NCBI GenBank assembly: GCA_016209425.1
Contig: JACQWA010000428.1
Coordinates: 1-34,645, forward strand
Length of the DNA: 34,645 bases
Direction: 5' to 3'
Source of the DNA: Candidatus Rokuibacteriota bacterium
GTDB taxonomy: Bacteria > Methylomirabilota > Methylomirabilia > Rokubacteriales > CSP1-6
Numbering within the stretch: position 1 is the first letter of the stretch; each line of letters begins with the position of its first letter. Below are positions 9,956-27,602 of this stretch, in pieces. Position numbers and translations under genes: made by a program. Under the pieces are notes generated by a model. It had not been told where the DNA came from. It did no database searches and saw only the letters and a list, made by a program, of their open reading frames with translations.

Positions 9956-10610
9956 GACGGGCGCGGGGCCGCCCGGCCCCGGTCCGGCTCCCGGGTCGCG
10001 AGGCGCGGGCTGCCCCTTCCAAAGCGGGACGATACTCCATCTGCTGGGCGATGCGCTCCCGCGCCTTGTCCCCCCAGAACCGTTCCACGAGATAAAGCCC
10101 GAGGTCCAGCGCCGACGACACGCCCCCCGCGGTGATCACATTTCCCTCGTCCACGATCCGCCGATCCCGCACCACCTCGCGGCAGTACGGGGCGAGCAGG
10201 TCGTAGGCGTTCCGATGGGTGGTGGCGCGTTTGTCCCGGAGGTAGCCGGCCTTGCCCAGCAGGAGCGCCCCGGTGCAGACGCTGGCGATCGGCCGCTCCA
10301 CGCCCCACCGACGCAGATAGTCCAGACACCAATCGTCTCCCATCAACCGCCGCGTTCCAACCCCGCCGGGAAGATAGAGGAGGTCGAACGTCGAGAGATC
10401 GTCGTAGACCGCATCGGGTCTCAGCACGATGCCGGTCTCGTCCGAAATCTCGGACTGGGTGCCGATGAACCGATGGGTGAGCGCCGGATCGATCCCCATG
10501 AGGGCCACGCGCCGGAGGCTGTCATAGGCGCCCACCAAATCCAGGAGCGTCAGACCGGGAAAGATGAAGAAGGCGATCTTCTTGATCGGCCGCACCGTGT
10601 CCCCCCTCAT
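9948..10610 (-). CDS. DJ-1/PfpI family protein (isonitrile hydratase-like)
   Basis: 220 codons from ATG at 10610, overlapping the lyase stop by ATGA. Class I glutamine-amidotransferase-like fold: FPGLTLLDLVGAYD near 17-30 (Asp24), the LLYLPGG strand near 78-83, and the nucleophile elbow ASVCTGALLLGKAG with Cys112 and Thr113. The Asp/Cys/Thr combination resembles isonitrile hydratase InhA of Pseudomonas and the amidotransferase-like domain of GlxA/AraC-type regulators, but no DNA-binding domain follows. The C-terminal 25 residues are Arg/Gly/Pro-rich and probably unstructured. Last gene of the cupin/MaoC/CitE operon. Function is not determined. Confidence 0.85.
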   Translation of the reverse strand: MRGDTVRPIKKIAFFIFPGLTLLDLVGAYDSLRRVALMGIDPALTHRFIGTQSEISDETGIVLRPDAVYDDLSTFDLLYLPGGVGTRRLMGDDWCLDYLRRWGVERPIASVCTGALLLGKAGYLRDKRATTHRNAYDLLAPYCREVVRDRRIVDEGNVITAGGVSSALDLGLYLVERFWGDKARERIAQQMEYRPALEGAARASRPGSRTGAGRPRARPR

Positions 10611-11500
10611 ACCACGCCTGCCCGCCTGGCCCGCTCGATGACCTTCTGGGCGCGGGTCAGGTGGGGCATATCCACCATCTGCCCCTTGAAGGCAAACGCC
10701 CCACTCCCCTTCCTGCCCTGCTCCTCAAAGGCGGCGATCAACGCCCGGGCCTCCTGGACCTCCTCCCTCGTGGGGCTGAAGACCTCGTTGATCACGGGGA
10801 TCTGGCTCGGGTGAATGGAGATCTTTCCCGTGAACCCCATCCAGACCCCCTCCTGACACTCCCGACGGAGCTCCGCCAGGTTGGGGATGTCGGTGAAGAC
10901 GGTATCGATGGCCTCGACCCCTGCGGCAGCGGCAGCCAGGGTCGTCATCACCCGGGCATAGCGCGGGATGTCGAGGTATCGCCCGTCGGCATCCCGCGTC
11001 CGCGACAACCCCATGGCCGCCGACAGGTCCTCGATCCCCCACGAGACGGCCGCGATGCGTGGACTGGCTTTGGCCATCTCGGCGATGTTCAGGAGCCCCT
11101 CGGGAGTCTCGGTCGCGATGAGAATGAGCCTGGTTGACCCGAAGACGATGCCGTGCTTCTCCTCAAGTCTGTCAAGGATCGAGGCAACGGCGCGAATGTC
11201 AGCCGCGTTCCGCGGCTTGGGAACCATGTAGCCGTCGGGGCGCCCCGCAATCGTCCATTCGAGGTCGGCCTCGCCGAAGCCCGTGACCAGGGGGTTCATG
11301 CGGATCCATCGCTCCTTGCCGTCGAAGTCCAGGGTCTGGAGCCACCGGAGCACGATGCCCCGCGCCTCGGCCTTCCTGTCCACCGTGACCGCGTCCTCCA
11401 GGTCGAGGATCAAGCCGTCGGGGGGGAGCGTGAGGGCTTTGGCCATCATCCGCTCGTTTCCCCCGGGGACAAAGTGGAGCGAGCGCCGGAGCCCCGTCAT
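10607..11500 (-). CDS. HpcH/HpaI-type acyl-CoA lyase (CitE-like, malyl/citramalyl-CoA lyase family)
   Basis: 297 codons from ATG at 11500. TIM-barrel lyase of the CitE/MCL group: N-terminal RSLHFVPGGNERM, ILDLEDAV at 31-38, substrate-binding Arg68 in WIRMNPL, metal ligand Glu131 (LIATETPEG), Asp158 in VSWGIEDLSAAMG, and the late GKISIHPSQIP stretch. These are the hallmarks of CoA-thioester lyases that split malyl-, methylmalyl- or citramalyl-CoA. It is coupled to MaoC hydratase upstream and PfpI downstream. The ATG directly follows an intergenic two-hairpin repeat whose end supplies the GAGG before the start. Which acyl-CoA is cleaved is inference from context; the family is certain. Confidence 0.9.
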   Translation of the reverse strand: MTGLRRSLHFVPGGNERMMAKALTLPPDGLILDLEDAVTVDRKAEARGIVLRWLQTLDFDGKERWIRMNPLVTGFGEADLEWTIAGRPDGYMVPKPRNAADIRAVASILDRLEEKHGIVFGSTRLILIATETPEGLLNIAEMAKASPRIAAVSWGIEDLSAAMGLSRTRDADGRYLDIPRYARVMTTLAAAAAGVEAIDTVFTDIPNLAELRRECQEGVWMGFTGKISIHPSQIPVINEVFSPTREEVQEARALIAAFEEQGRKGSGAFAFKGQMVDMPHLTRAQKVIERARRAGVV

Positions 11501-11588
11501 ACCTCGGCGGGGGGCTCCGCCCCCCTTCCGATCCCGCCCCCCGGCGGGTGCGCGGGCCATGCCCGCGCTCGAACAAGCGCGGGGTAAC
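11501..11588 (-). repeat. Two-hairpin intergenic repeat, copy 1 of 3
   Basis: Read on the minus strand it opens with TGTTCGAGCGCGGGC and GCCCGCGC (first hairpin), continues through a G-rich segment, and ends with GGGGGGC-GGA-GCCCCCC (second hairpin) and GAGG just before the CitE-like gene ATG. It shares TGTTCGAGCGC and the overall order with copies at about 15275 and 25191. It fills most of the gap between the MaoC stop and the lyase start. Confidence 0.7.
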
Positions 11589-11591
11589 GTA

Positions 11592-12056
11592 TCATGCGGG
11601 TGCTCCGGGAATCCGGCGGCGCATCATGGCCGCGCGCCGGCACCGCATGACGATCTCGCCTCGCTGGTTCTTGGCCCGGTGCTCGAAAATCACGATCCCC
11701 CACTGAGGACGCGAGCGCGACTCGCGCTTCTCGACGACCTCGGTCTCGGCGTAGATGGTGTCGCCGTGAAAGACCGGCTGGGGAAACTCCACCTTCTCGA
11801 AGCCGAGGTTCCCCACCGTTGTCCCGAGCGTCGTCTCCCCCACCGACAAGCCCACCGCGATCCCGAGGGTCAGCAGGCTGTTCACCAGGGGCTTGCCGAA
11901 TTCGGCCTTCGAGGCCGCCTCGAAGTCGAGATGGAGCGGTTGGGGGTTCATGGTGAGGCAGGTGAAGAAGACGTTGTCGGCCTCGGTGACGGTACGGCCG
12001 GGTTGATGCTGGAAGACCTGCCCGACGCTCAATTCCTCGAAGAGCTTGCCGGCCAT
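11592..12056 (-). CDS. MaoC family (hotdog-fold) enoyl-CoA hydratase
   Basis: 154 codons from ATG at 12056; GGAG lies between the cupin stop and this ATG (TGA-GGAG-ATG). MaoC-like hotdog protein with the hydratase motif region [15 protein letters not shown] at residues 30-44. His42 matches the catalytic histidine and Asn37 sits where classical R-hydratases usually have aspartate; mesaconyl-CoA and itaconyl-CoA hydratases have related variants. Later [14 protein letters not shown] near 94-107 is the conserved hotdog strand pair. Expected to hydrate an enoyl-CoA in the cytoplasm, feeding the CitE-like lyase encoded next. Substrate remains inferred. Confidence 0.88.
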
Positions 12057-12060
12057 CTCC

Positions 12061-12456
12061 TCACTCCCTCGTGCGTGGCTTCCAGACCCCGGAGGCCCTG
12101 AACTTTTCCTGCTCGCCCGGCGGCGAGAACGTCCAGGTGAGGCGGGCGGGCTCATGGGTGTGGTTCACGAACCCGTGGGGCGTTCCCGGCGGGATGAAAA
12201 TGGCGGTCTCCGGACCCACCTCCACTTCGGCCGCCCCCACCCGGGCGCGGCCGGAGCCTTGATACACGAAGAGAATCTCTTCGGCCTCAGGGTGGACGTG
12301 AACGGGAATCTGGCTCCCGGGGCCGACCTCCTCGGTCCCCATGGCCAGATGCTCGGCTCCTGTGGTCCCGGGCTCAATCATGAGCTGCACCGAACGGGGA
12401 AATCCGTCTTCCGCCTCCCGCCACTCCGCCTCGCGTTTCGGCACGATCCTGCGCAT
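12061..12456 (-). CDS. Small cupin-domain protein
   Basis: 131 codons from ATG at 12456. Single cupin domain: first motif with His53, His55 and Glu59 ([10 protein letters not shown]), second motif [18 protein letters not shown] with His94, giving the usual three-His/one-Glu metal site. Single-domain cupins of this type may be isomerases, dioxygenases or sensors; sequence does not decide. It is the first gene of the cupin/MaoC/CitE-like/PfpI operon, four bases ahead of the MaoC ATG. Longer in-frame starts up to 12564 would run into an inverted repeat and have no family similarity, so they are rejected. No convincing Shine-Dalgarno is seen. Confidence 0.85.
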
Positions 12457-15274: not shown

Positions 15275-15370
15275 CCTGTTCGAGCGCCCACCCGCACCTC
15301 CGCGCGGGTACCCGGCCGGCGCAACCGCCGGGGGGAGGTCCGGAAGGGGGGGCGTCAGCCCCCTCCGGGG
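15275..15370 (+). repeat. Two-hairpin intergenic repeat, copy 2 of 3
   Basis: Starts CCTGTTCGAGCGC (shared with copy 3) and ends GGAAGGGGGGGCG-TCA-GCCCCCTCC, a G/C-rich hairpin like those of copies 1 and 3. It shares CCGCCGGGGGG and TCCGGAAGGGGGG with copy 1. The middle is longer, with a variant first hairpin. It lies between the amidohydrolase remnant and the stop of the secreted-protein gene, with the second hairpin next to the stop, as in copy 3. Confidence 0.65.
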
Positions 15371-15371
15371 T

Positions 15372-15773
15372 TTACTCGACGGCGACGGCGGTGACCGTGA
15401 ACTTGCCGTCTTTCTCGTCGAGCGTCACCGCGCCCTTCCCTTTTCGTTCCGAGCCCCCCGCCTTCACCGCAATCTCCTCCACCGTCACCCCCTTTACTTT
15501 CCCCTCAACCCGGACCGCGGAAAGGCCGCGGAAGGGGAAAATCAGCTGGACGTCGGCTTTCTTGCCCTGGACATCGAGCGTGTACTCAGTGCCACCGACC
15601 TTAACCGTCACCTTGTCCCCTGCCTGAGCTTTCACCGCCTCCCAATTCCCCTTCCCCCAACCCATCAGGAACTCCTGTGCCGCCTGGATGTGAGGCGGCA
15701 TCTGTGCCCGGGCGTGGGCCGCGCTGAGAAGGGCCACCAGCGAGCTTGCCAGGATCGTCCCGAATCGAGCCAT
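15372..15773 (-). CDS. Small secreted protein of unknown function
   Basis: 133 codons from ATG at 15773, GGAGG nine bases upstream. Signal peptide: short Arg-containing start, hydrophobic TILASSLVALLSAAHA, cleavage likely after AHARA (about residue 16-17), leaving a mature protein of about 115 residues. The N-terminal part of the mature region (PPHIQAAQEFLMGWGKGNWE) looks helical, resembling DUF4783/SnoaL-like openings; the rest is Lys/Val/Gly-rich alternating strands ending in TVTAVAVE. No catalytic motif recognised. Probably periplasmic. Monocistronic, with its own promoter candidate at 15917-15946. Confidence 0.75.
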   Translation of the reverse strand: MARFGTILASSLVALLSAAHARAQMPPHIQAAQEFLMGWGKGNWEAVKAQAGDKVTVKVGGTEYTLDVQGKKADVQLIFPFRGLSAVRVEGKVKGVTVEEIAVKAGGSERKGKGAVTLDEKDGKFTVTAVAVE

Positions 15774-16041: not shown

Positions 16042-16083
16042 ATTTGCTTGATGGACCTATATTTTGTGTCAAGACAGTCTGGT

Positions 16084-16129
16084 CAGAGGAAAGTCCTCTG
16101 TTGACAGGGGTTTGGGCTTCGTCTACAGT
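16084..16129 (+). promoter_or_regulatory. Promoter of the DGQHR gene with adjoining palindrome
   Basis: CAGAGGA-AAG-TCCTCTG (16084-16100) is a perfect palindrome touching the -35 TTGACA (16101-16106). Seventeen bases later is TACAGT (16124-16129). Then GGAGGG (16142-16147) and ATG at 16151. The palindrome is well placed to act as an operator. Confidence 0.6.
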
Positions 16130-16150
16130 GGTGGTCCGGGTGGAGGGCCC

Positions 16151-17287
16151 ATGATCACCGTTCCGGCTCACCGTGTAAAGCAGTTCGGGCTCGAGTTCTA
16201 TCAAGCCTCATTTTCCGCCAAGGACATCGACCGCCTGGTGAAGTTTGAGGTCCTGGGTTACGCGGGAGGGCTGCCCAAAGAGCCCTCCAAAGCCCGGCGC
16301 GCTTCTCGGGCTCGTGTCAATTGGGAGATGCTGGAAAAACGGATTGGCGAGAGCGAGGCCGCCTACCAGCGCCCGGTGATCCGTCGAAAGATCGAGGAGC
16401 TCGTCTCGTACTACCGGGACTGCAAGGAGGCGGGGACCCTCCCGGCGATTCCGGGGGCCGTGATCATCACCTCGGAGAAGCGCTTCACCTTCACCCCCAT
16501 GGCGAGCCACCACGACCTGGGGTTGCTCCAGATTCCTGAGGAGCACGGCGTCCTCCGGGTCCTGGACGGCCAACACCGCCTCCTCGCGCTCCATGCCCTG
16601 ACCCAAGCCGGCGAGGTGCTGGCAATCGAGGTGCCGGCGGTGCTGTTCGACACCCTGGACGCTCGGCAGATCGTGGAGCTTTTCGTCACCATCAACGCCA
16701 AGCACACGCGGCTCAACCCCTCGCACATCGTGAGCCTCGCCGGCCGCAAGCTCTACCCCGACCCCAACCAGGCGCTGGCCCACGACGTCATCCGCTCGCT
16801 CAACGAGGACGAGACCTCGCCGCTTCATGGCGAGATCAAGATGCTCGGCACCGGGCGCGGGAGAGTTTCCCAGGCCCCGCTGGCCGAGGAGACCGTGGAT
16901 TTCCTGGGGACGGTGGAGAACATCGGGGGGAGCGCGCGGATCCAGGAGCTGCGCCAGGGAGCCAAACGGTTCTTCCTGAACTATATGAAGGCCGTGGCGG
17001 GCGTGTTTGCGGCGGCGTGGGCGGGCCGAAAATACTCAATCAAGACCGGCGCGGCTCTGCGGGCGTTCATCCGCGTCGCGCCGGACGTGATGGCGCGCGC
17101 CCGGGAGCTCAGGAAGGATCCCTTCGACCTTCACGCCATCCGCGAGGCGATCAAGCCATGGGGGACCCGGCTGGGTGACCGCCGCTTCGAGACCGAAGGC
17201 GAGTGGAGACAGAAGCTGGCGGGCGGCACCCGGGGAACGGTCGAGACGCTGACCAAAGAACTTCGCGACGCCTTGAAGTCATCCTAA
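16151..17287 (+). CDS. DGQHR-domain protein (DndB-like)
   Basis: 378 codons from ATG at 16151, chosen because GGAGGG sits four bases before it and a promoter lies at 16101-16129; longer in-frame starts precede the promoter. The diagnostic motif LDGQHRLLAL occupies residues 138-147 (DGQHR 139-143), followed by FVTINAKHTRLNPSHIV near 178-194, as in DndB and other DGQHR/ParB-like nuclease-fold proteins. DndB regulates the phosphorothioation dnd cluster; no dndA, C, D or E is present here. It converges on the HhH-GPD gene with 15 bases between. Linkage to the modification island suggests a defence or regulatory role. Substrate and partner unknown. Confidence 0.85.
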   Translation: MITVPAHRVKQFGLEFYQASFSAKDIDRLVKFEVLGYAGGLPKEPSKARRASRARVNWEMLEKRIGESEAAYQRPVIRRKIEELVSYYRDCKEAGTLPAIPGAVIITSEKRFTFTPMASHHDLGLLQIPEEHGVLRVLDGQHRLLALHALTQAGEVLAIEVPAVLFDTLDARQIVELFVTINAKHTRLNPSHIVSLAGRKLYPDPNQALAHDVIRSLNEDETSPLHGEIKMLGTGRGRVSQAPLAEETVDFLGTVENIGGSARIQELRQGAKRFFLNYMKAVAGVFAAAWAGRKYSIKTGAALRAFIRVAPDVMARARELRKDPFDLHAIREAIKPWGTRLGDRRFETEGEWRQKLAGGTRGTVETLTKELRDALKSS

Positions 17288-21891: not shown

Positions 21892-24800
21892 ATGAGCTTT
21901 CTTGAAGTCTTTGTGCGGCGCCCGGTCTTCACGACGATGCTGATCGCTTCGTTCGTCGTCCTGGGGGCAGCCTCCTTCCTCCAGCTGGGCGTGGATATTT
22001 TCCCCAAGGTCGATCTCCCCACCATCACGATCACCACCCGCCTGCCGGGCGCCAGCCCCGAGGAGATCGAGAGCCAGATCACCAAGCCCATCGAAGAGGT
22101 CGTCAACACGATCAGCGGCCTCGACGAGCTCCGCTCGAGCACCATCGAGGGGCAGTCGCAGGTCCTCGCCACGTTCGTGCTCGAGCGGAACGTCCAGGAG
22201 GCCGCCAACGACGTGCGCGAGAAGGTCGCCACGGTCGTCTCGCGGTTTCCGGCCGGCACGGAGTCGCCCGTCATCGAGAAGTTCGACCCCGATTCGGCTC
22301 CCGTCATGGCGGTGGTGGTCTCGGGCCAGCGCTCGGCCCGCGAGGTCACCGAGATCGCCGACAAGCGGATCAAGCGCCAGCTCGAGACCGTGAAGGACGT
22401 CGGGGCCATCACGCTGGTCGGCGACCGGAAGCGCGAGATCCAGGTGCTCGTGGACCCCCACAAGCTCACCGCCTTCGGCCTCTCGATCCAGCAGATCAAG
22501 GAGGCGCTGCTCCGCCAGAACGTCGAGATCCCGGGCGGGCGCGTGACCGAAGGCGGACGCGAGGAGGGCCTTCGGACCCTCGGCCGGATCGAGTCGCCGG
22601 CAGCGTTCAACGACCTGATCGTGGCCGATTTCAAGGGGGGGCCGGTCCACATCCACGACATCGGCACCGTGGTGGACGGCGAAGAAGAGCCCCGGACGCT
22701 GTCGCGCCTGAACGGCCAGACCGCCGTCAGCCTCCTCATCCGGAAGCAGTCGGGGACCAACACGGTGGCGGTGGTCGATGCCGTGAAGAAAAAGCTCGCG
22801 GAGGTTCAGAAGGGACTGCCGCCAGATATCCAGTTCGACGTCGTCCGCGACCTGTCGCGCTTCATCAAGCGTTCTTTCCACGAGGTCCAGGATCACCTCT
22901 TGCTGGGCGGTCTCCTGGCCAGCCTCATCGTGGCGGTGTTCATCGGCAACCTCCTCTGGTGGGAGAGCGCCGCGATCGCCGCGATCGTCGCCGCGGTAGG
23001 AGCGGCTTTCCTTTCGGGCGACCCCCAGCTCCTCCTTCAGGTCACCGGCGGAGCCATCCTGGTCACCATGCTCCTGTTCCTCACAATCCGGAAGCTCCGG
23101 CCGGCCTTCGTCGCGGCCCTGGCCATCCCCTGCTCGATCATCGCGACCTTCACGGCCATGCGCATCGCCGGCTTCACGCTCAACAACCTGACGATGCTCG
23201 GGCTCTCCCTCGTCACGGGCATCGTGATCGACGACGCCATCATCGTGCTGGAGAACATCTTCCGCCACACCGAGGAGGAGGGGCGCTCACCCTTCGAGGC
23301 GGCCATCACCGGAACCCGGGAGATTGCCCTGGCGGTCATGGCCACGACCCTGTCGCTCGTCGTGATCTTCCTGCCGGTGGCCTTCATGGGCGGGCTCGTG
23401 GGGAAGTTCTGGAACTCCTTCGGGCTCACCGCGACCTTCGCCATCCTCGTCTCGCTCGTCGTGGCGTTCACCCTGACCCCCATGCTGGCGGCCCGGATCC
23501 TGGCCGCCCGCCCCGCGGACGACGCGACACGGAGGTCCAAGGAGTCCCCGTTCTACCGAACCATCGAGCACTGGTACGAGGTGGCGCTGGCGTGGGGCCT
23601 CCGCCACCGGCTGGTCGTGCTGGGCGCAACGCTCCTCATCCTTGTCGGCGGTGTCTTTCTCCTGAGTCGCGCGAAGCTGGAGTTCGTGGTCGACGACGAC
23701 ATGAGCGAGTTCGAGGTGGTGGCCGAGGCCCCGCCCGGCTCGTCACTCGAGCGCACCGCCGGGATCGCCCGGACGCTGGAGGGGGAGATCCGGAAGATCT
23801 CCGAGGTGCAGACCCTGTTCACCACCATCGGGGTCCGCGGCCAGTACCAGTCCAACGTCACGGACATCTCGATCTACGTCGGCCTCAAGCATCTGTCCAT
23901 GCGCACGCGGACCCAGGACGAGATCAAACAGGAGGTGCGAAAGCGGCTGGCCGCCCACCCCGGGCTCCGCATCAGCGCCCAGCAGATCAACCTGATCGGC
24001 GGCGGCGGCTTCCGGCAGACCCCGTTCAACCTGATCCTCCGCGGGCCGGATCTCGGCAAGCTGGACGGCTACGCCGCCGCGGTCATCCGGGACCTCTCGA
24101 CCAAGCCCGGCTTCGTGGATCTGGACACGGCGCAGTCCCAGCGGCAGCCCGAGCTTCAGGTCCTGATCGACCGCCAGAAGGCCTCCGATCTCGGGGTGCG
24201 GGTGGCCAGCATCGCCTCGGCGCTCCGGACCATGGTGGGCGGCGAGAAGGCGGGGTTCTACCGCGAGGAGGGCGAGCAGTACGACGTCCGCCTCCGTCTC
24301 AAGGAAGATTTCCGGAAAGACGCGTCGGTCATCGCCGATCTCACCGTGCCGGGAGCCGGCGGCCAGCTCGTCAAGCTCTCCAACGTCACCTCGCTGGCGC
24401 CCGGGATGAGTCCCGGCCAGATCGAGCGATACGCCCAAGAACGCTCCATCACCATCGTCTCAAACCTCTCCCAGAAGCCGCTGGGAGAGGCCCTCGCCGA
24501 AGGCTACGCGGCCGTGCGCAAGCTCACGATGCCACTGGAGTACGGCATCGTGACGATCGGCCGGGGCAAACTTCTCGCCGAATCGATCCAGAACTTCCTG
24601 ATCGCCTTTGTCCTGTCGCTGGCCTTCATCTACATCGTGCTCGCCGCCCAGTTCGAGTCGTTCATCCACCCCGTCACGATCATGGTTTCCCTGTTCCTGT
24701 CGATCCCCTTCGGGCTCCTCTCCCTCCTGCTCGTCGGCAAGACCCTCAACATCTACTCGATCATGGGCCTCTTCCTCCTGATGGGGGTTGTCAAGAAGAA

Positions 24801-25188
24801 CGCGATCCTCCAGGTGGACTACACCAACGTGCTCCGGGGGCGGGGCATGGCGCGCTTCGAGGCTCAGATGCAGGCCGACCGGGCCCGGCTCCGACCGATC
24901 CTGATGACCACGCTGGCCATCATCGCGGGGATGTTGCCGGTGGCCCTGGGACGGGGCGACGGAGCAGCCTCCCGGGCCTCCCTCGCCACGGTCGTGGTCG
25001 GAGGCCAGGCCCTCTGCCTCGTCGTCACGCTCCTGGTGACGCCGGTGATCTACTCGATGTTCGACGACCTCCGGGGCCTCCGCGTCTTCTCCTGGGTCCG
25101 TTTCCCGCGCTGGCGGGAAGCCCTCGCCGCCCGCTTGGACTGGCTGGGGGAACGGCGCGCCGCCAACAGCCGCCGCCCAACGACTTAA
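21892..25188 (+). CDS. RND family efflux pump permease (AcrB/MexB-like) with extra hydrophobic insertion
   Basis: 1098 codons from ATG at 21892. Hydrophobe/amphiphile RND transporter: N-terminal [19 protein letters not shown] (TM1), [19 protein letters not shown], the proton-relay Asp-Asp pair Asp447/Asp448 in [14 protein letters not shown], the mid TM cluster, and [15 protein letters not shown] late in the protein. In AcrB the Asp pair is 407/408. The 40-residue shift is explained by added sequence between TM2 (about 336-352) and the conserved [15 protein letters not shown] (about 401-415), containing two further hydrophobic runs (about 359-374 and 379-399). Forms a homotrimer with the adaptor. 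Substrate not deducible. Confidence 0.93.
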
Positions 25189-25190
25189 CC

Positions 25191-25275
25191 TCGCGCCTGT
25201 TCGAGCGCGGGCTTCGCCCGCGCAAACCTTTCGAGGGGGAGGCCTCGGAGGGGGCGGCCGAGGCCCCCTCCGAAG
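25191..25275 (+). repeat. Two-hairpin intergenic repeat, copy 3 of 3
   Basis: First hairpin GCGCGGGC (25205-25212), loop TTC, GCCCGCGC (25216-25223). Second hairpin TCGGAGGGGGC (25245-25255), seven-base loop, GCCCCCTCCGA (25263-25273). It fills the whole gap between the convergent stops of the RND pump and oxidase-fold genes. It begins CCTGTTCGAGCGC like copy 2 and shares TGTTCGAGCGCGGGC with copy 1. Confidence 0.75.
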
Positions 25276-25680
25276 TTACATCCCCCAGGAGAAGACGTGG
25301 GTGGGAGTCACCTCGACGATCACTGAATCCTTTTCGTCGAGGGCCGCCTCGCTGGGGTACTGGGGGTACTTCTTGTAGAAGAGCGCGCGGACCTTCCGAA
25401 AACGGGGCCCGCGGTCGATCAGTTTGGCTCTCCCCTGAACCATCACGCCTTTTAAGTGCTCCCAGGCGTCCGAGTAGCAATCGACGGTCACCGTGACGCG
25501 CGGGTTCGCCTGGAGGTTCCGGATCTTCTTGGCGTCGTCCCCGGAGGCGAAGTAGATCCGGCCCCCTTCCAGGACGTGGCAGACGGGAACGCTATGGGAC
25601 CACCCGCTGGCCCCGACCGTGGCGACGCGACACACGCGCTCCCATTGGATCAGCTGAGCTTCGGCCTTCTTGAGACGCAC
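25276..25680 (-). CDS. Pyridoxamine 5'-phosphate oxidase-fold protein
   Basis: 134 codons from GTG at 25680 with GGAGAG upstream; an extension to 25776 would run into the PpiD gene. Split-barrel flavin-binding fold (PNPOx-like): VCRVATVGASGWSHSVPVC near 16-34, GGRIYFASGDDAKKIRNLQAN near 40-60, then VTVTVDCYSD and VMVQGRAKLID. Families of this kind bind FMN, F420 or heme; sequence alone does not choose. It follows the PpiD gene by 17 bases in the same direction. Its C-terminus VEVTPTHVFSWGM is typical. Role unknown. Confidence 0.85.
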   Translation of the reverse strand: MRLKKAEAQLIQWERVCRVATVGASGWSHSVPVCHVLEGGRIYFASGDDAKKIRNLQANPRVTVTVDCYSDAWEHLKGVMVQGRAKLIDRGPRFRKVRALFYKKYPQYPSEAALDEKDSVIVEVTPTHVFSWGM

Positions 25681-25697
25681 GGAGCTCTCCCTGGTCG

Positions 25698-27602
25698 TCA
25701 AGGGGTGGCAGAACCGAGGCCGGACGAGACCTGGATCTTGGCCTCCGCCCTCAGGCCCCGCGCCCAGCCCTCCCACGCCTGGTTCTTCTTCTGCTCCAGC
25801 ACCTGCTGACGGAGCTCCTCCCGCTCCTTCTCAAATCCGGCCGCGTCTGGGGCCCGGCGCTCGAGCGTCTTGACCACGAAGACCCCCTCGGGGGTCGCCA
25901 CGGGCTCGGCGACCTTCCCCACGGCCAGTCCGAGGGCGACCCGCATCACCTCACCCGGCACCCGGCGGTCGGCCGCCGGCTCGGAGCGCGAGAAGAAGCC
26001 GGTGTCGCCCGAAGGCAGCCCCTGCTTCTTGCCCGCCCCGAGCAGATCGTCGCCCTTCTCGGCCGCCTCAGCCAGCGCTTTCGCGCGGGCGAGGGCCAAG
26101 GTCTCGGCCTTTTGCCGCTTGACGGCCTCGGCCACCTTCCCCTTGACTTCGGCGAACGCGGGGACGGCGGCCGGGATCTGCTCGACGACCTTGACAATCA
26201 CGTACCCGGCCGGGGTCTTGAGCGGGCTGGACACCCCCCCCACGGCGAGGGAGAACAGGGTGTCCTCCAGAGCCTGGAGCCGCCCGATTTCCTCCAGCGA
26301 ACCGCCCCGCGCCAGGAGGGCGCCCTTCGGCTCGAGGCCACGTCGCCCGGCCTCAGCCATGAAATCCTTCGCGCCCTGGAGCGCCCCCTTGACCTCATCG
26401 GCCTTGGCCAGGGCGGCGCGCTCGCTCCGCTCGCCCTGGAGCTTTTCCCGAATCTGCCCCGCCACCTCTTTGAGGGAGCGCCGTCCCCCGTCCTGGATCT
26501 CCGAAACCTTGATCGCATGATAGCCAAAGGGCGTGCGCACCGGCTCCGGCGAGATCTCGCCCTTCCGCAGGGCAAAGACCGCCTGCTCAAAGGCCGGAAC
26601 CACCTCGCCCCGCCCGATGTAGCCGAGGTCCCCTCCCGAACCCGCCGAGGCCGGATCCTCGGAGATCTCCCTGGCGAGCTTGGCGAAATCCTCCCCCGCC
26701 CGGGCCCGCTTGATGGCCGCCTCCACCTTGGCCTTGGCCTTTTCCTCCGCCTCGCTCCCGCCCACGGGAGGGACACGCACGAGGATGTGGGCCGCCCTCA
26801 CGCGCCGGGGCGCCTCGAACTCCGAGGCGTGCTCCTTGTAGTACGCCTCTACGTCAGCGTCCGTCACGGAGGCCATGAAGGCCCTGGGGCTCACCAGCAC
26901 ATAGTGCAGGCGCCGTCGCTCGGGCTCCTGGAAGCGCATCGGGTTCGTCTTCAGGAACGCTTCCAGCTCAGCCTCGGTGGCGCTGACCTCGGCCATGAGC
27001 TGCGCAATCCCAACCTCGGCCCAGGCTGCTCGGACCTTCTCGCGCCGGAAGTCGTAGGCCTGCTTGAGCTCCATGTCGGAAACCTTGATGCCCTCCCTGA
27101 TCATCGCCTCCATCTTCTTGCGAACCAGCTCGCGCCGCTGCTCGGTCTCGAAGGTCGCCGGATCGATCTTGGCGCGAGTCAGGATCTGCCGATAGCGCTC
27201 CCGCGAAAAGCGCCCGTCCTCCTGGAAGGCCCGGATGGCTTGGACCTTCGCGCGGAGCTCGTCGTCCCCCACCTGGATCCCGTCGGCGTTCGCCCGCTGG
27301 AGGATCAGCGTCTCCAGGATCAGGTCGTTCACGACCTGCTGGGAGATCCCCAGGCGCTCGGCGACCTCAGAGGTGAAGCGCTCCTTGTACAGCTGGCGGT
27401 AGAACTCCATGTAGGACCGGTAGAGCCGCTGGTAGCGCTCGAGCGGAATTTCCTCGCCGTTGACCGTCGCCACCGCCGTGGGATCGCTCCCGGTAATGCT
27501 CCCCTTCCCCCAGACGAAGAACGAGGTCCCGACGAAGGCGGCGATCACGACCCACAGGGTGATCGAGAGCGCTTTCAGATTCCGTCGCAATGCGCTGATC
27601 AT
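25698..27602 (-). CDS. Periplasmic peptidyl-prolyl isomerase/chaperone (PpiD/SurA type)
   Basis: 634 codons from ATG at 27602, AAGGAG upstream. A single N-terminal membrane anchor (about 10-32) precedes a SurA_N-type helical region (about 40-180), then a parvulin rotamase domain about 267-370 ([46 protein letters not shown]). A second degenerate parvulin-like repeat follows ([18 protein letters not shown], about 455-480) and a third near 560-600 ([17 protein letters not shown]). The architecture matches PpiD of the inner membrane, which helps outer-membrane and secreted proteins fold. Usual length. Lies downstream of the purine permease in a minus-strand run. Confidence 0.9.

What the first reader, a model, noticed from the sequence alone, without database searches (positions are those of the whole stretch)
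25191..25275. Three-copy two-hairpin intergenic repeat family in 34 kb
Copies at 11501-11588 (minus), 15275-15370 (plus) and 25191-25275 (plus) share TGTTCGAGCGC and the same order: a GCGCGGGC hairpin, a spacer, and a GGAGGGGGC/GCCCCCTCC hairpin. Two of the three have their second hairpin next to the stop of a minus-strand gene. Conserved structure with diverged arms suggests a non-autonomous mobile or REP-like element, possibly used as a terminator.
Basis: seen in the sequence. Interest (0 to 1): 0.55.

Follow-up and report, generated by a model that had tools for sequence, protein, structure and literature searches.

The report
Rokubacterial hairpin insertion element at gene junctions
Three short two-hairpin repeats in this stretch belong to a family of small, protein-less mobile DNA insertions found by the hundreds in the uncultured bacterial group Rokubacteria, where they land where one gene stops and the next starts and leave unusually variable duplicated scars, so their jumping mechanism is unknown but now testable.

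Summary
A ~73-nt core (TGTTCGA, hairpin 1, GGGGGGAGG, hairpin 2) has at least 150 matches in the 4.45 Mb genome, roughly 275 by extrapolation. It occurs in all 39 genomes tested of its order. An exact 29-mer search of 84,980 species genomes hit only Candidatus Rokubacteria. Both stems show compensatory changes.

Relatives preserve clean empty sites, so copies are insertions. Ancestral sites are usually overlapping stop/start codons (ATGA); filled sites carry flanking direct repeats (target duplications). These are very variable, 4-11 nt or 23-46 nt, with perfect 43- and 46-nt examples. The right end (hairpin 2) lies at a fixed place next to the right repeat, followed by a short A/T-rich tail; the left end is ragged. 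Three junctions, two of them in the window, were hit independently in different genomes.

Best reading: a non-autonomous mobile element that works like the Yersinia YPAL/RU-2 repeats (published target duplications 3-26 bp). REP/RAYT membership is not supported: no Y1 transposase here, and target duplications exist. Terminator function is untested. Mobilising enzyme unknown; a retroposon-like route is possible but no resident reverse transcriptase explains it.

The parts
25198..25274 (+). element copy A core: TGTTCGA 25198-25204, hairpin 1 25205-25223, SD-like GGGGGAGG 25235-25242, hairpin 2 25245-25273
   Evidence: same site filled in G027 (L243) and G020 (L244), and in G006 (L242) with a different upstream flank; absent in G019 (L253) and G016 (L246)
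11501..11591 (-). element copy B, whole insertion read on the minus strand: 16-nt left extension 11591-11576, core 11575-11503, last bases before the right repeat 11502-11501
   Evidence: the orthologous junction is empty (overlapping stop/start) in G027, G019 and G020
11592..11595 (-). left copy of the ATGA repeat (contains TGA stop of the MaoC-like gene)
   Evidence: alignment with empty site GCATGAGTAGC of G027
11497..11500 (-). right copy of the ATGA repeat (contains ATG start of the HpcH/HpaI aldolase-like gene)
15277..15369 (+). element copy C core, atypical and longer hairpin 1; abuts stop TTA 15372-15374 of a minus-strand gene
   Evidence: G006 carries a copy at the same junction in the opposite orientation
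10607..11500 (-). HpcH/HpaI aldolase/citrate lyase-like gene whose start codon abuts copy B
11592..12155 (-). MaoC-like dehydratase gene upstream of copy B (start position uncertain)
21892..25188 (+). AcrB/AcrD/AcrF (RND) efflux pump gene ending 9 nt before copy A
25276..25776 (-). PNPOx-like gene, convergent, stop codon directly after copy A (start position uncertain)

Best explanation
A family of non-autonomous mobile elements of Rokubacteria (order of the window's genome). One unit is a ~73-nt core of two GC-rich hairpins plus a ragged 5-47-nt left extension and a 2-6-nt A/T-rich right tail, about 85-125 nt in all, with no protein. A copy is inserted by a reaction that cuts the two target strands at a variable distance (4-11 nt, or 23-46 nt) and joins the hairpin-2 end at a fixed position, giving direct target repeats. 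Insertions that survive are those at gene junctions, typically overlapping stop/start codons (ATGA), because the repeat restores both the stop of the upstream gene and the start of the downstream gene. Shown: multi-copy family, conserved structure, empty sites, target duplications, fixed right end, ragged left end, junction location, independent hits of one junction. Inferred: that survival (selection), not only target preference, explains the location. Not known: the enzyme. My split for the mobilising route: target-primed reverse-transcription-like or other RNA-templated 0.3; joining of a hairpin-ended single-stranded DNA into a staggered break 0.35; a DDE transposase with unusually loose stagger 0.2; other 0.15. 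After insertion, start-adjacent copies may act as a split ribosome-binding site (GGGGGGAGG held close to the ATG by hairpin 2), which would explain tolerance inside operons; this step is hypothesis only (about 0.3).
For: Distribution: 39 of 39 same-order genomes, 0 of 21 genomes of other orders in the class; 55 exact 29-mer stretches among 84,980 species, all titled Candidatus Rokubacteria/Rokuibacteriota; no exact match in viral contigs, none in plasmids. Structure: 5 of 19 pairs with double changes, 43 cells vs 8.3 in shuffles, 99.7% paired. Empty sites: 11 CSP1-6 (G027) copies each have at least one empty ortholog in G000, G006, G019 or G020, and at several sites the two flanks of the filled site align over the same 4-30 bases of the empty site, i.e. 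a duplication. Target repeats without use of orthologs: score >=9 in 18 of 164 copies vs 2.3 in permuted flank pairs; >=12 in 10 vs 0.2 (two of these ten are false positives and one doubtful, see full report). Examples read out: 46 nt perfect (L339), 43 nt perfect (L018), 45 nt with 3 mismatches (L074), 30 nt perfect (L182). Independent hits of one junction: window 11503 (own ATGA repeat; G006 a separate ~39-nt repeat; three genomes empty), window 15277 (opposite orientations in own and G006), L115/L207 (opposite orientations). Junction: 71 copies start-adjacent, 41 stop-adjacent, none between divergent starts. Tail 58% A+T vs 29-31%.
Against: Most copies show no detectable target repeat any more, either because they are old or because the repeat is under 7 nt, so the length distribution rests on about 25 clear cases. 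No autonomous partner was found. Copies differ (157 distinct cores of 158), so there is no proof of recent activity apart from the perfect long repeats. Short repeats at ATGA could partly be favoured by selection for both codons rather than produced by the enzyme. All genomes are metagenome assemblies, and gene calls come from a simple codon-model caller.
Confidence: 0.82

Rival explanations
1. REP/REPIN element mobilised by a Y1 (RAYT, IS200/IS605-like) transposase.
For: Short imperfect palindromes, extragenic, hundreds of copies, sometimes in tandem.
Against: No PF01797 match in the window's genome and none in most same-order genomes, while the family is in all of them; target duplications are present; REPs are not known to make them (general knowledge).
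Confidence: 0.04
2. SINE-like retroposon: an RNA ending in hairpin 2 is copied into a nicked target (target-primed reverse transcription) by a reverse transcriptase acting in trans.
For: Fixed 3' end next to the repeat, A/T-rich tail, ragged or shorter 5' ends, target repeats of 4-46 nt.
Against: RVT_1 (PF00078) has no match in several genomes rich in copies, e.g. G006, G016, G020, G022, G024, G037, and only two weak matches in the window's genome; the tail is only 2-6 nt; transcription not tested.
Confidence: 0.25
3. Ordinary MITE of a DDE transposase with an 8-9 bp target duplication.
For: Many repeats are 7-11 nt; one subfamily shares a fixed left end (about 15 nt, TGTCGGAnTAACCnC) whose TCGGAG resembles the reverse complement of the right end.
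Against: Repeats of 23-46 nt abut the same right end; no proper terminal inverted repeats in the main subfamily; no autonomous copy found.
Confidence: 0.2
4. Not mobile: a conserved host regulatory RNA or terminator duplicated with genes.
For: Conserved hairpins with compensatory changes; copy A is kept at one convergent junction in several genera.
Against: Clean empty orthologous sites, target repeats, both orientations at the same junction; no Rfam match.
Confidence: 0.05
5. Chance G/C-run hairpins.
For: High GC genome (67.5%), G and C runs.
Against: 60 vs 1 reversed-pattern control hits, 0 of 21 genomes in other orders of the class, covariation.
Confidence: 0.01

Closest known systems
YPAL / RU-2 (Yersinia palindromic sequences, ~168 bp)
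   Same: Small non-autonomous repeat, not A+T-rich, no TA-ended terminal inverted repeats, inverted repeats internal, intergenic, empty and filled sites, target duplications of variable size (3-26 bp) as reviewed in PMC2229807.
   Different: Different host lineage, two consecutive GC-rich hairpins rather than one 168-bp unit with an ORF, insertion mainly at overlapping stop/start codons, target repeats up to 46 nt. Sequence homology with YPAL was not tested.
REP / REPIN with RAYT
   Same: Short extragenic palindromes in hundreds of copies, sometimes clustered.
   Different: Target duplications present; no RAYT/Y1 gene in the genome; no GTAG-headed palindrome noticed.
ERIC/IRU, Correia/NEMIS, RUP (TIR/TA MITEs)
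   Same: About 100-bp non-coding mobile repeats that fold as RNA.
   Different: Those have terminal inverted repeats and TA at the termini (table in PMC2229807); these do not.
CIR (Caulobacter intergenic repeats)
   Same: 5' and 3' parts form independent stem-loops, intergenic (PMC2229807).
   Different: CIR have TA termini and a methyltransferase-associated DNA motif, and no demonstrated target duplication in that table; sequence comparison not done here.
T4 gene 38/25 split ribosome-binding site
   Same: Works-like comparison only: an SD kept at functional distance from AUG by an intervening hairpin (PMC3014915).
   Different: Here it is a hypothesis from spacing alone; no expression data.

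Membership tests
YPAL/RU-2-like small mobile repeats (as a kind) | no protein, <200 bp, many dispersed copies | tested here: met
YPAL/RU-2-like small mobile repeats (as a kind) | target duplications of variable length | tested here: met
   4-46 nt
YPAL/RU-2-like small mobile repeats (as a kind) | internal inverted repeats, no TA-ended terminal inverted repeats | tested here: met
YPAL/RU-2 family proper | sequence homology to the Yersinia 168-bp element | not tested
   YPAL sequence not fetched; one search found an exact element 29-mer only in Rokubacteria
REP/RAYT | Y1 (RAYT) transposase in the same genome | tested here: not met
   no PF01797 match in G000, and none in most of the 39 same-order genomes
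REP/RAYT | insertion without target duplication | tested here: not met
DDE MITE | terminal inverted repeats matching an autonomous IS | tested here: inconclusive
   weak TCGGAG similarity in one subfamily only; no autonomous copy searched for systematically
DDE MITE | fixed target duplication length | tested here: not met
   4-11 and 23-46 nt
SINE-like retroposon | fixed 3' end, ragged 5' end, variable target duplications | tested here: met
   a 5' truncation series is suggestive, not proven
SINE-like retroposon | reverse transcriptase partner in the genome | tested here: not met
   no RVT_1 match in several high-copy genomes
SINE-like retroposon | RNA intermediate | not testable with these tools
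   no transcript data
intrinsic terminator | GC hairpin followed by a U-tract | tested here: not met
   sequences: no U-tract on either strand

The most novel reading that the evidence does not exclude
A bacterial SINE-like retroposon: a small structured RNA whose hairpin-ended 3' terminus is copied into nicked gene junctions, with 5' truncation and target repeats of 4-46 nt, mobilised in trans and spread through a whole bacterial order.
Probability: 0.22. Interest if true: 0.88.

Novelty: new variant of a known kind. Interest (0 to 1): 0.55.

Why it matters
Small mobile repeats with variable target duplications have been known from Yersinia (YPAL) for some twenty years, without an established mechanism in the material I could read. 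This family supplies hundreds of copies per genome in dozens of related genomes, with ready empty/filled pairs and even independent hits of the same junction, so the cutting geometry can be measured and candidate enzymes can be screened by presence and absence. It also shows how insertions can be tolerated inside operons: a target repeat that covers an overlapping ATGA rebuilds both the stop and the start codon. It is a warning for annotation too: ORF callers extend genes into these elements.

Tried and rejected
Rfam at gathering threshold (window) and by E-value (five loci): nothing. Y1 transposase and reverse transcriptase as resident mobilisers: do not track the element. Conserved left extension across all copies: no, information content is near background beyond about 6 nt; only subfamilies share one. 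SD conservation as proof of the split-RBS idea: rejected as weak, 69/71 start-adjacent vs 35/41 stop-adjacent copies carry it (p=0.05). The apparent 63-nt repeat at L344 and 26-nt repeat at L275 were discarded: the first is tandem copies of the element, the second looks like similar neighbouring tRNA gene ends. Literature searches for Rokubacteria repeats found nothing relevant. The within-window statistics alone would not have been convincing.

Full report
OBSERVATION. The shared 11-mer alone is only mildly unusual inside 34.6 kb (3 hits with up to one mismatch vs 1.1 expected; 9 of 100 shuffles reach 3). The genome settles it: TGTTCGAGCGCGGGC has 13 exact and 60 near matches in the 4.45 Mb assembly against 1 for the reversed control. 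Most of the loci printed show the same anatomy: [YG]TTCGA - GCGCGGGC/loop/GCCCGCGC - AACC - 0 to 9 nt - GGGGGGAGG - 2 to 3 nt - TCGGAAGGGGGGC/loop/GCCCCCCTCCGA - G (alignment A1). A few hits are chance matches inside genes (for example L004, L021, L028).

FAMILY SIZE AND RANGE. A covariance model (R1) scores the maximum of 150 candidates in the genome at E below 0.006 and finds 24 copies in 387 kb of contig stretches, about 275 per genome by extrapolation. The stretches were chosen partly because they carried hits, so this is a rough, upper-side estimate. All 39 genomes of the same order contain it, and 21 genomes of other orders of the class contain none. A 29-mer of hairpin 1 occurs in 55 stretches of the 84,980-species collection, every one titled Candidatus Rokubacteria or Rokuibacteriota. 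It is absent from viral contigs as an exact 27-mer and from plasmids, and no Rfam family matches.

STRUCTURE. On 81 distinct sequences the two stems pair in 99.7% of cells. Five pairs change on both sides, with 43 double-changed cells vs 8.3 in shuffles. The clearest is the fifth pair of hairpin 1 (GC 53, CG 21, UA 6, AU 1). That alignment was fitted to the structure, but the same exchanges are visible in A1, which was not. Copies A and B of the window fold with z -3.3 and -3.7; the degenerate copy C does not.

INSERTIONS, NOT INHERITED SPACERS. Flanks of CSP1-6 (G027) copies were used to find orthologous junctions in four other genomes. Eleven junctions have at least one ortholog without the element, with matching sequence on both sides. 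At L111, for example, CCCGCGCTGATGAGCGAGGTGGACACC in the window's genome (L203) corresponds to CCCGCGCTGATGAGCGA - 44 nt - core - GAGGGAAA - ATGAGCGAGGTGGACACG in CSP1-6. The ancestral junction is mostly an overlapping stop/start (ATGA, TTGA or similar). In the filled site that motif is usually present on both sides.

TARGET REPEATS. For all 164 copies held, I searched for a direct repeat whose right copy starts within 9 nt of hairpin 2. Scores of 9 or more occur 18 times vs 2.3 in permuted flank pairs, and 12 or more 10 times vs 0.2. Two of the ten (L344, L275) are false positives from tandem elements and neighbouring tRNA ends; L144 at 12 nt is doubtful. The clear long cases are L339 46/46, L018 43/43, L067 42/43, L074 42/45, L182 30/30, L075 22/23, and L115, a 27-nt degraded repeat at the same site as L182. 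The short class is 7-11 nt (L111 ATGAGCGA, L113 CATGAGAGT, L106 CTAGGGCCG, L061 AGCGATGAG and others), down to ATGA at window copy B. At several sites the same is seen by comparison with empty orthologs, where the two flanks align over the same 4-30 bases. The right junction is constant (CCTCCGAG plus 0-6 nt), and that tail is 58% A+T against 31% in the following genes and 29% before ordinary ATG starts. The left side is ragged: about 5-22 nt in the long-repeat class, about 15-18 nt in a stop-adjacent subfamily (TGTCGGAnTAACCnC), and about 40-47 nt in many start-adjacent copies.

WINDOW COPIES. Copy B (11501-11591, minus) sits between a MaoC-like and an HpcH/HpaI aldolase-like gene. The junction is empty in G027, G019 and G020. 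The window's genome has a copy with an ATGA repeat. G006 has a copy with a separate ~39-nt repeat (31 of 41 bases still equal), which means a second insertion at the same junction. Copy C (15277-15369) meets a G006 copy of the opposite orientation at the same junction, again independent. A third independently hit junction is L115 (CSP1-6) / L207 (window's genome), in opposite orientations. Copy A (25198-25274), between a convergent RND pump gene and a PNPOx-like gene, is shared at the same site by the window's genome, G027 and G020; G006 has a copy next to the PNPOx-like gene but a different upstream flank; G019 and G016 have none. It is therefore old, and its retention at a convergent junction is the best hint of a host use such as bidirectional transcript ending; that is inference.

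LOCATION. Of 158 copies with enough flank, 71 have a start codon within about 14 nt of the right end, 61 of these between codirectional genes. In 41 a stop codon of an opposing gene lies 2-11 nt away, 46 are undecided, and none lies between two divergent starts. Loop subtypes differ: the longer GTCGAG-like loop is 12 stop-adjacent vs 1 start-adjacent, against 21 vs 62 for the CGGA-like loop (Fisher p 6e-6). A simple reading is survival. A repeat covering ATGA gives the upstream gene its stop and the downstream gene its start back, whereas most other insertions in a 92%-coding genome would break a gene.

MECHANISM. Y1 transposases are absent from the genome and from most of the order. A fixed-length DDE stagger does not account for both 8 and 46 nt. 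Reverse transcriptases are missing from several genomes with many copies, so a retroposon route would need a lost, distant or unassembled enzyme. A fixed hairpin end, ragged other end and variable target repeat fit target-primed copying of an RNA, or joining of a hairpin-ended strand into a staggered break. I cannot separate these with sequence alone. A TGTC near the left start of several subfamilies is unexplained.

AFTER INSERTION. Short-repeat copies put a start codon a few nt after a very stable hairpin and push the native ribosome-binding site away. The element carries GGGGGGAGG two to three nt before hairpin 2, so the folded distance to ATG is about 5-10 nt. This resembles the split ribosome-binding sites of T4 genes 38 and 25 (PMC3014915). 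The motif is almost as common in stop-adjacent copies, so it is not evidence of selection. Treat this as a testable idea only.

COMPARISON. The closest described kind is YPAL/RU-2 of Yersinia: internal inverted repeats, no TA termini, not A+T-rich, target duplications of 3-26 bp, empty and filled sites (review PMC2229807). The Rokubacterial family works like it, with a longer duplication range and a strong tie to stop/start overlaps. Sequence kinship was not tested. It is not a REP/RAYT element by the two features tested, and it lacks the TA-ended inverted repeats of ERIC, Correia and RUP.

LIMITS. Gene boundaries come from a simple codon-model caller. The number of clear target repeats is about 25. 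No expression data were available.

Noticed in passing
window 11500-11560, minus strand: The longest ORF of the aldolase-like gene starts at an ATG inside the hairpin-1 loop of the element (11560); the conserved start is 11500-11498, so automatic annotation would add about 20 element-encoded residues.
   Followed up: partly
window 16064-17287 (+): Gene with a DndB (DNA-sulfur modification-associated, PF14072) match, E=1.6e-15; neighbours were not checked for Dnd partners.
   Followed up: no
L275 (G019): An element copy appears to lie between two similar tRNA gene ends (TGGCGGAGGGGGTGGGATTCGAACCC on both sides).
   Followed up: no
L007:1500-1630: An element copy with extra sequence inserted inside its second hairpin region.
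   Followed up: no
L011, L121/L188: Copies apparently read through by an open frame, so that the element may supply codons of a neighbouring gene; the L121/L188 site is filled in both CSP1-6 and the window's genome.
   Followed up: no
L159/L180, L179, L322: Tandem or partial repeats of hairpin 1, and head-to-tail element copies close together.
   Followed up: no
G008, G011, G018 and some others: Same-family genomes with only 1-2 matches, versus 80 or more in others: expansion or loss differs strongly between genera, or the model misses divergent subfamilies.
   Followed up: no
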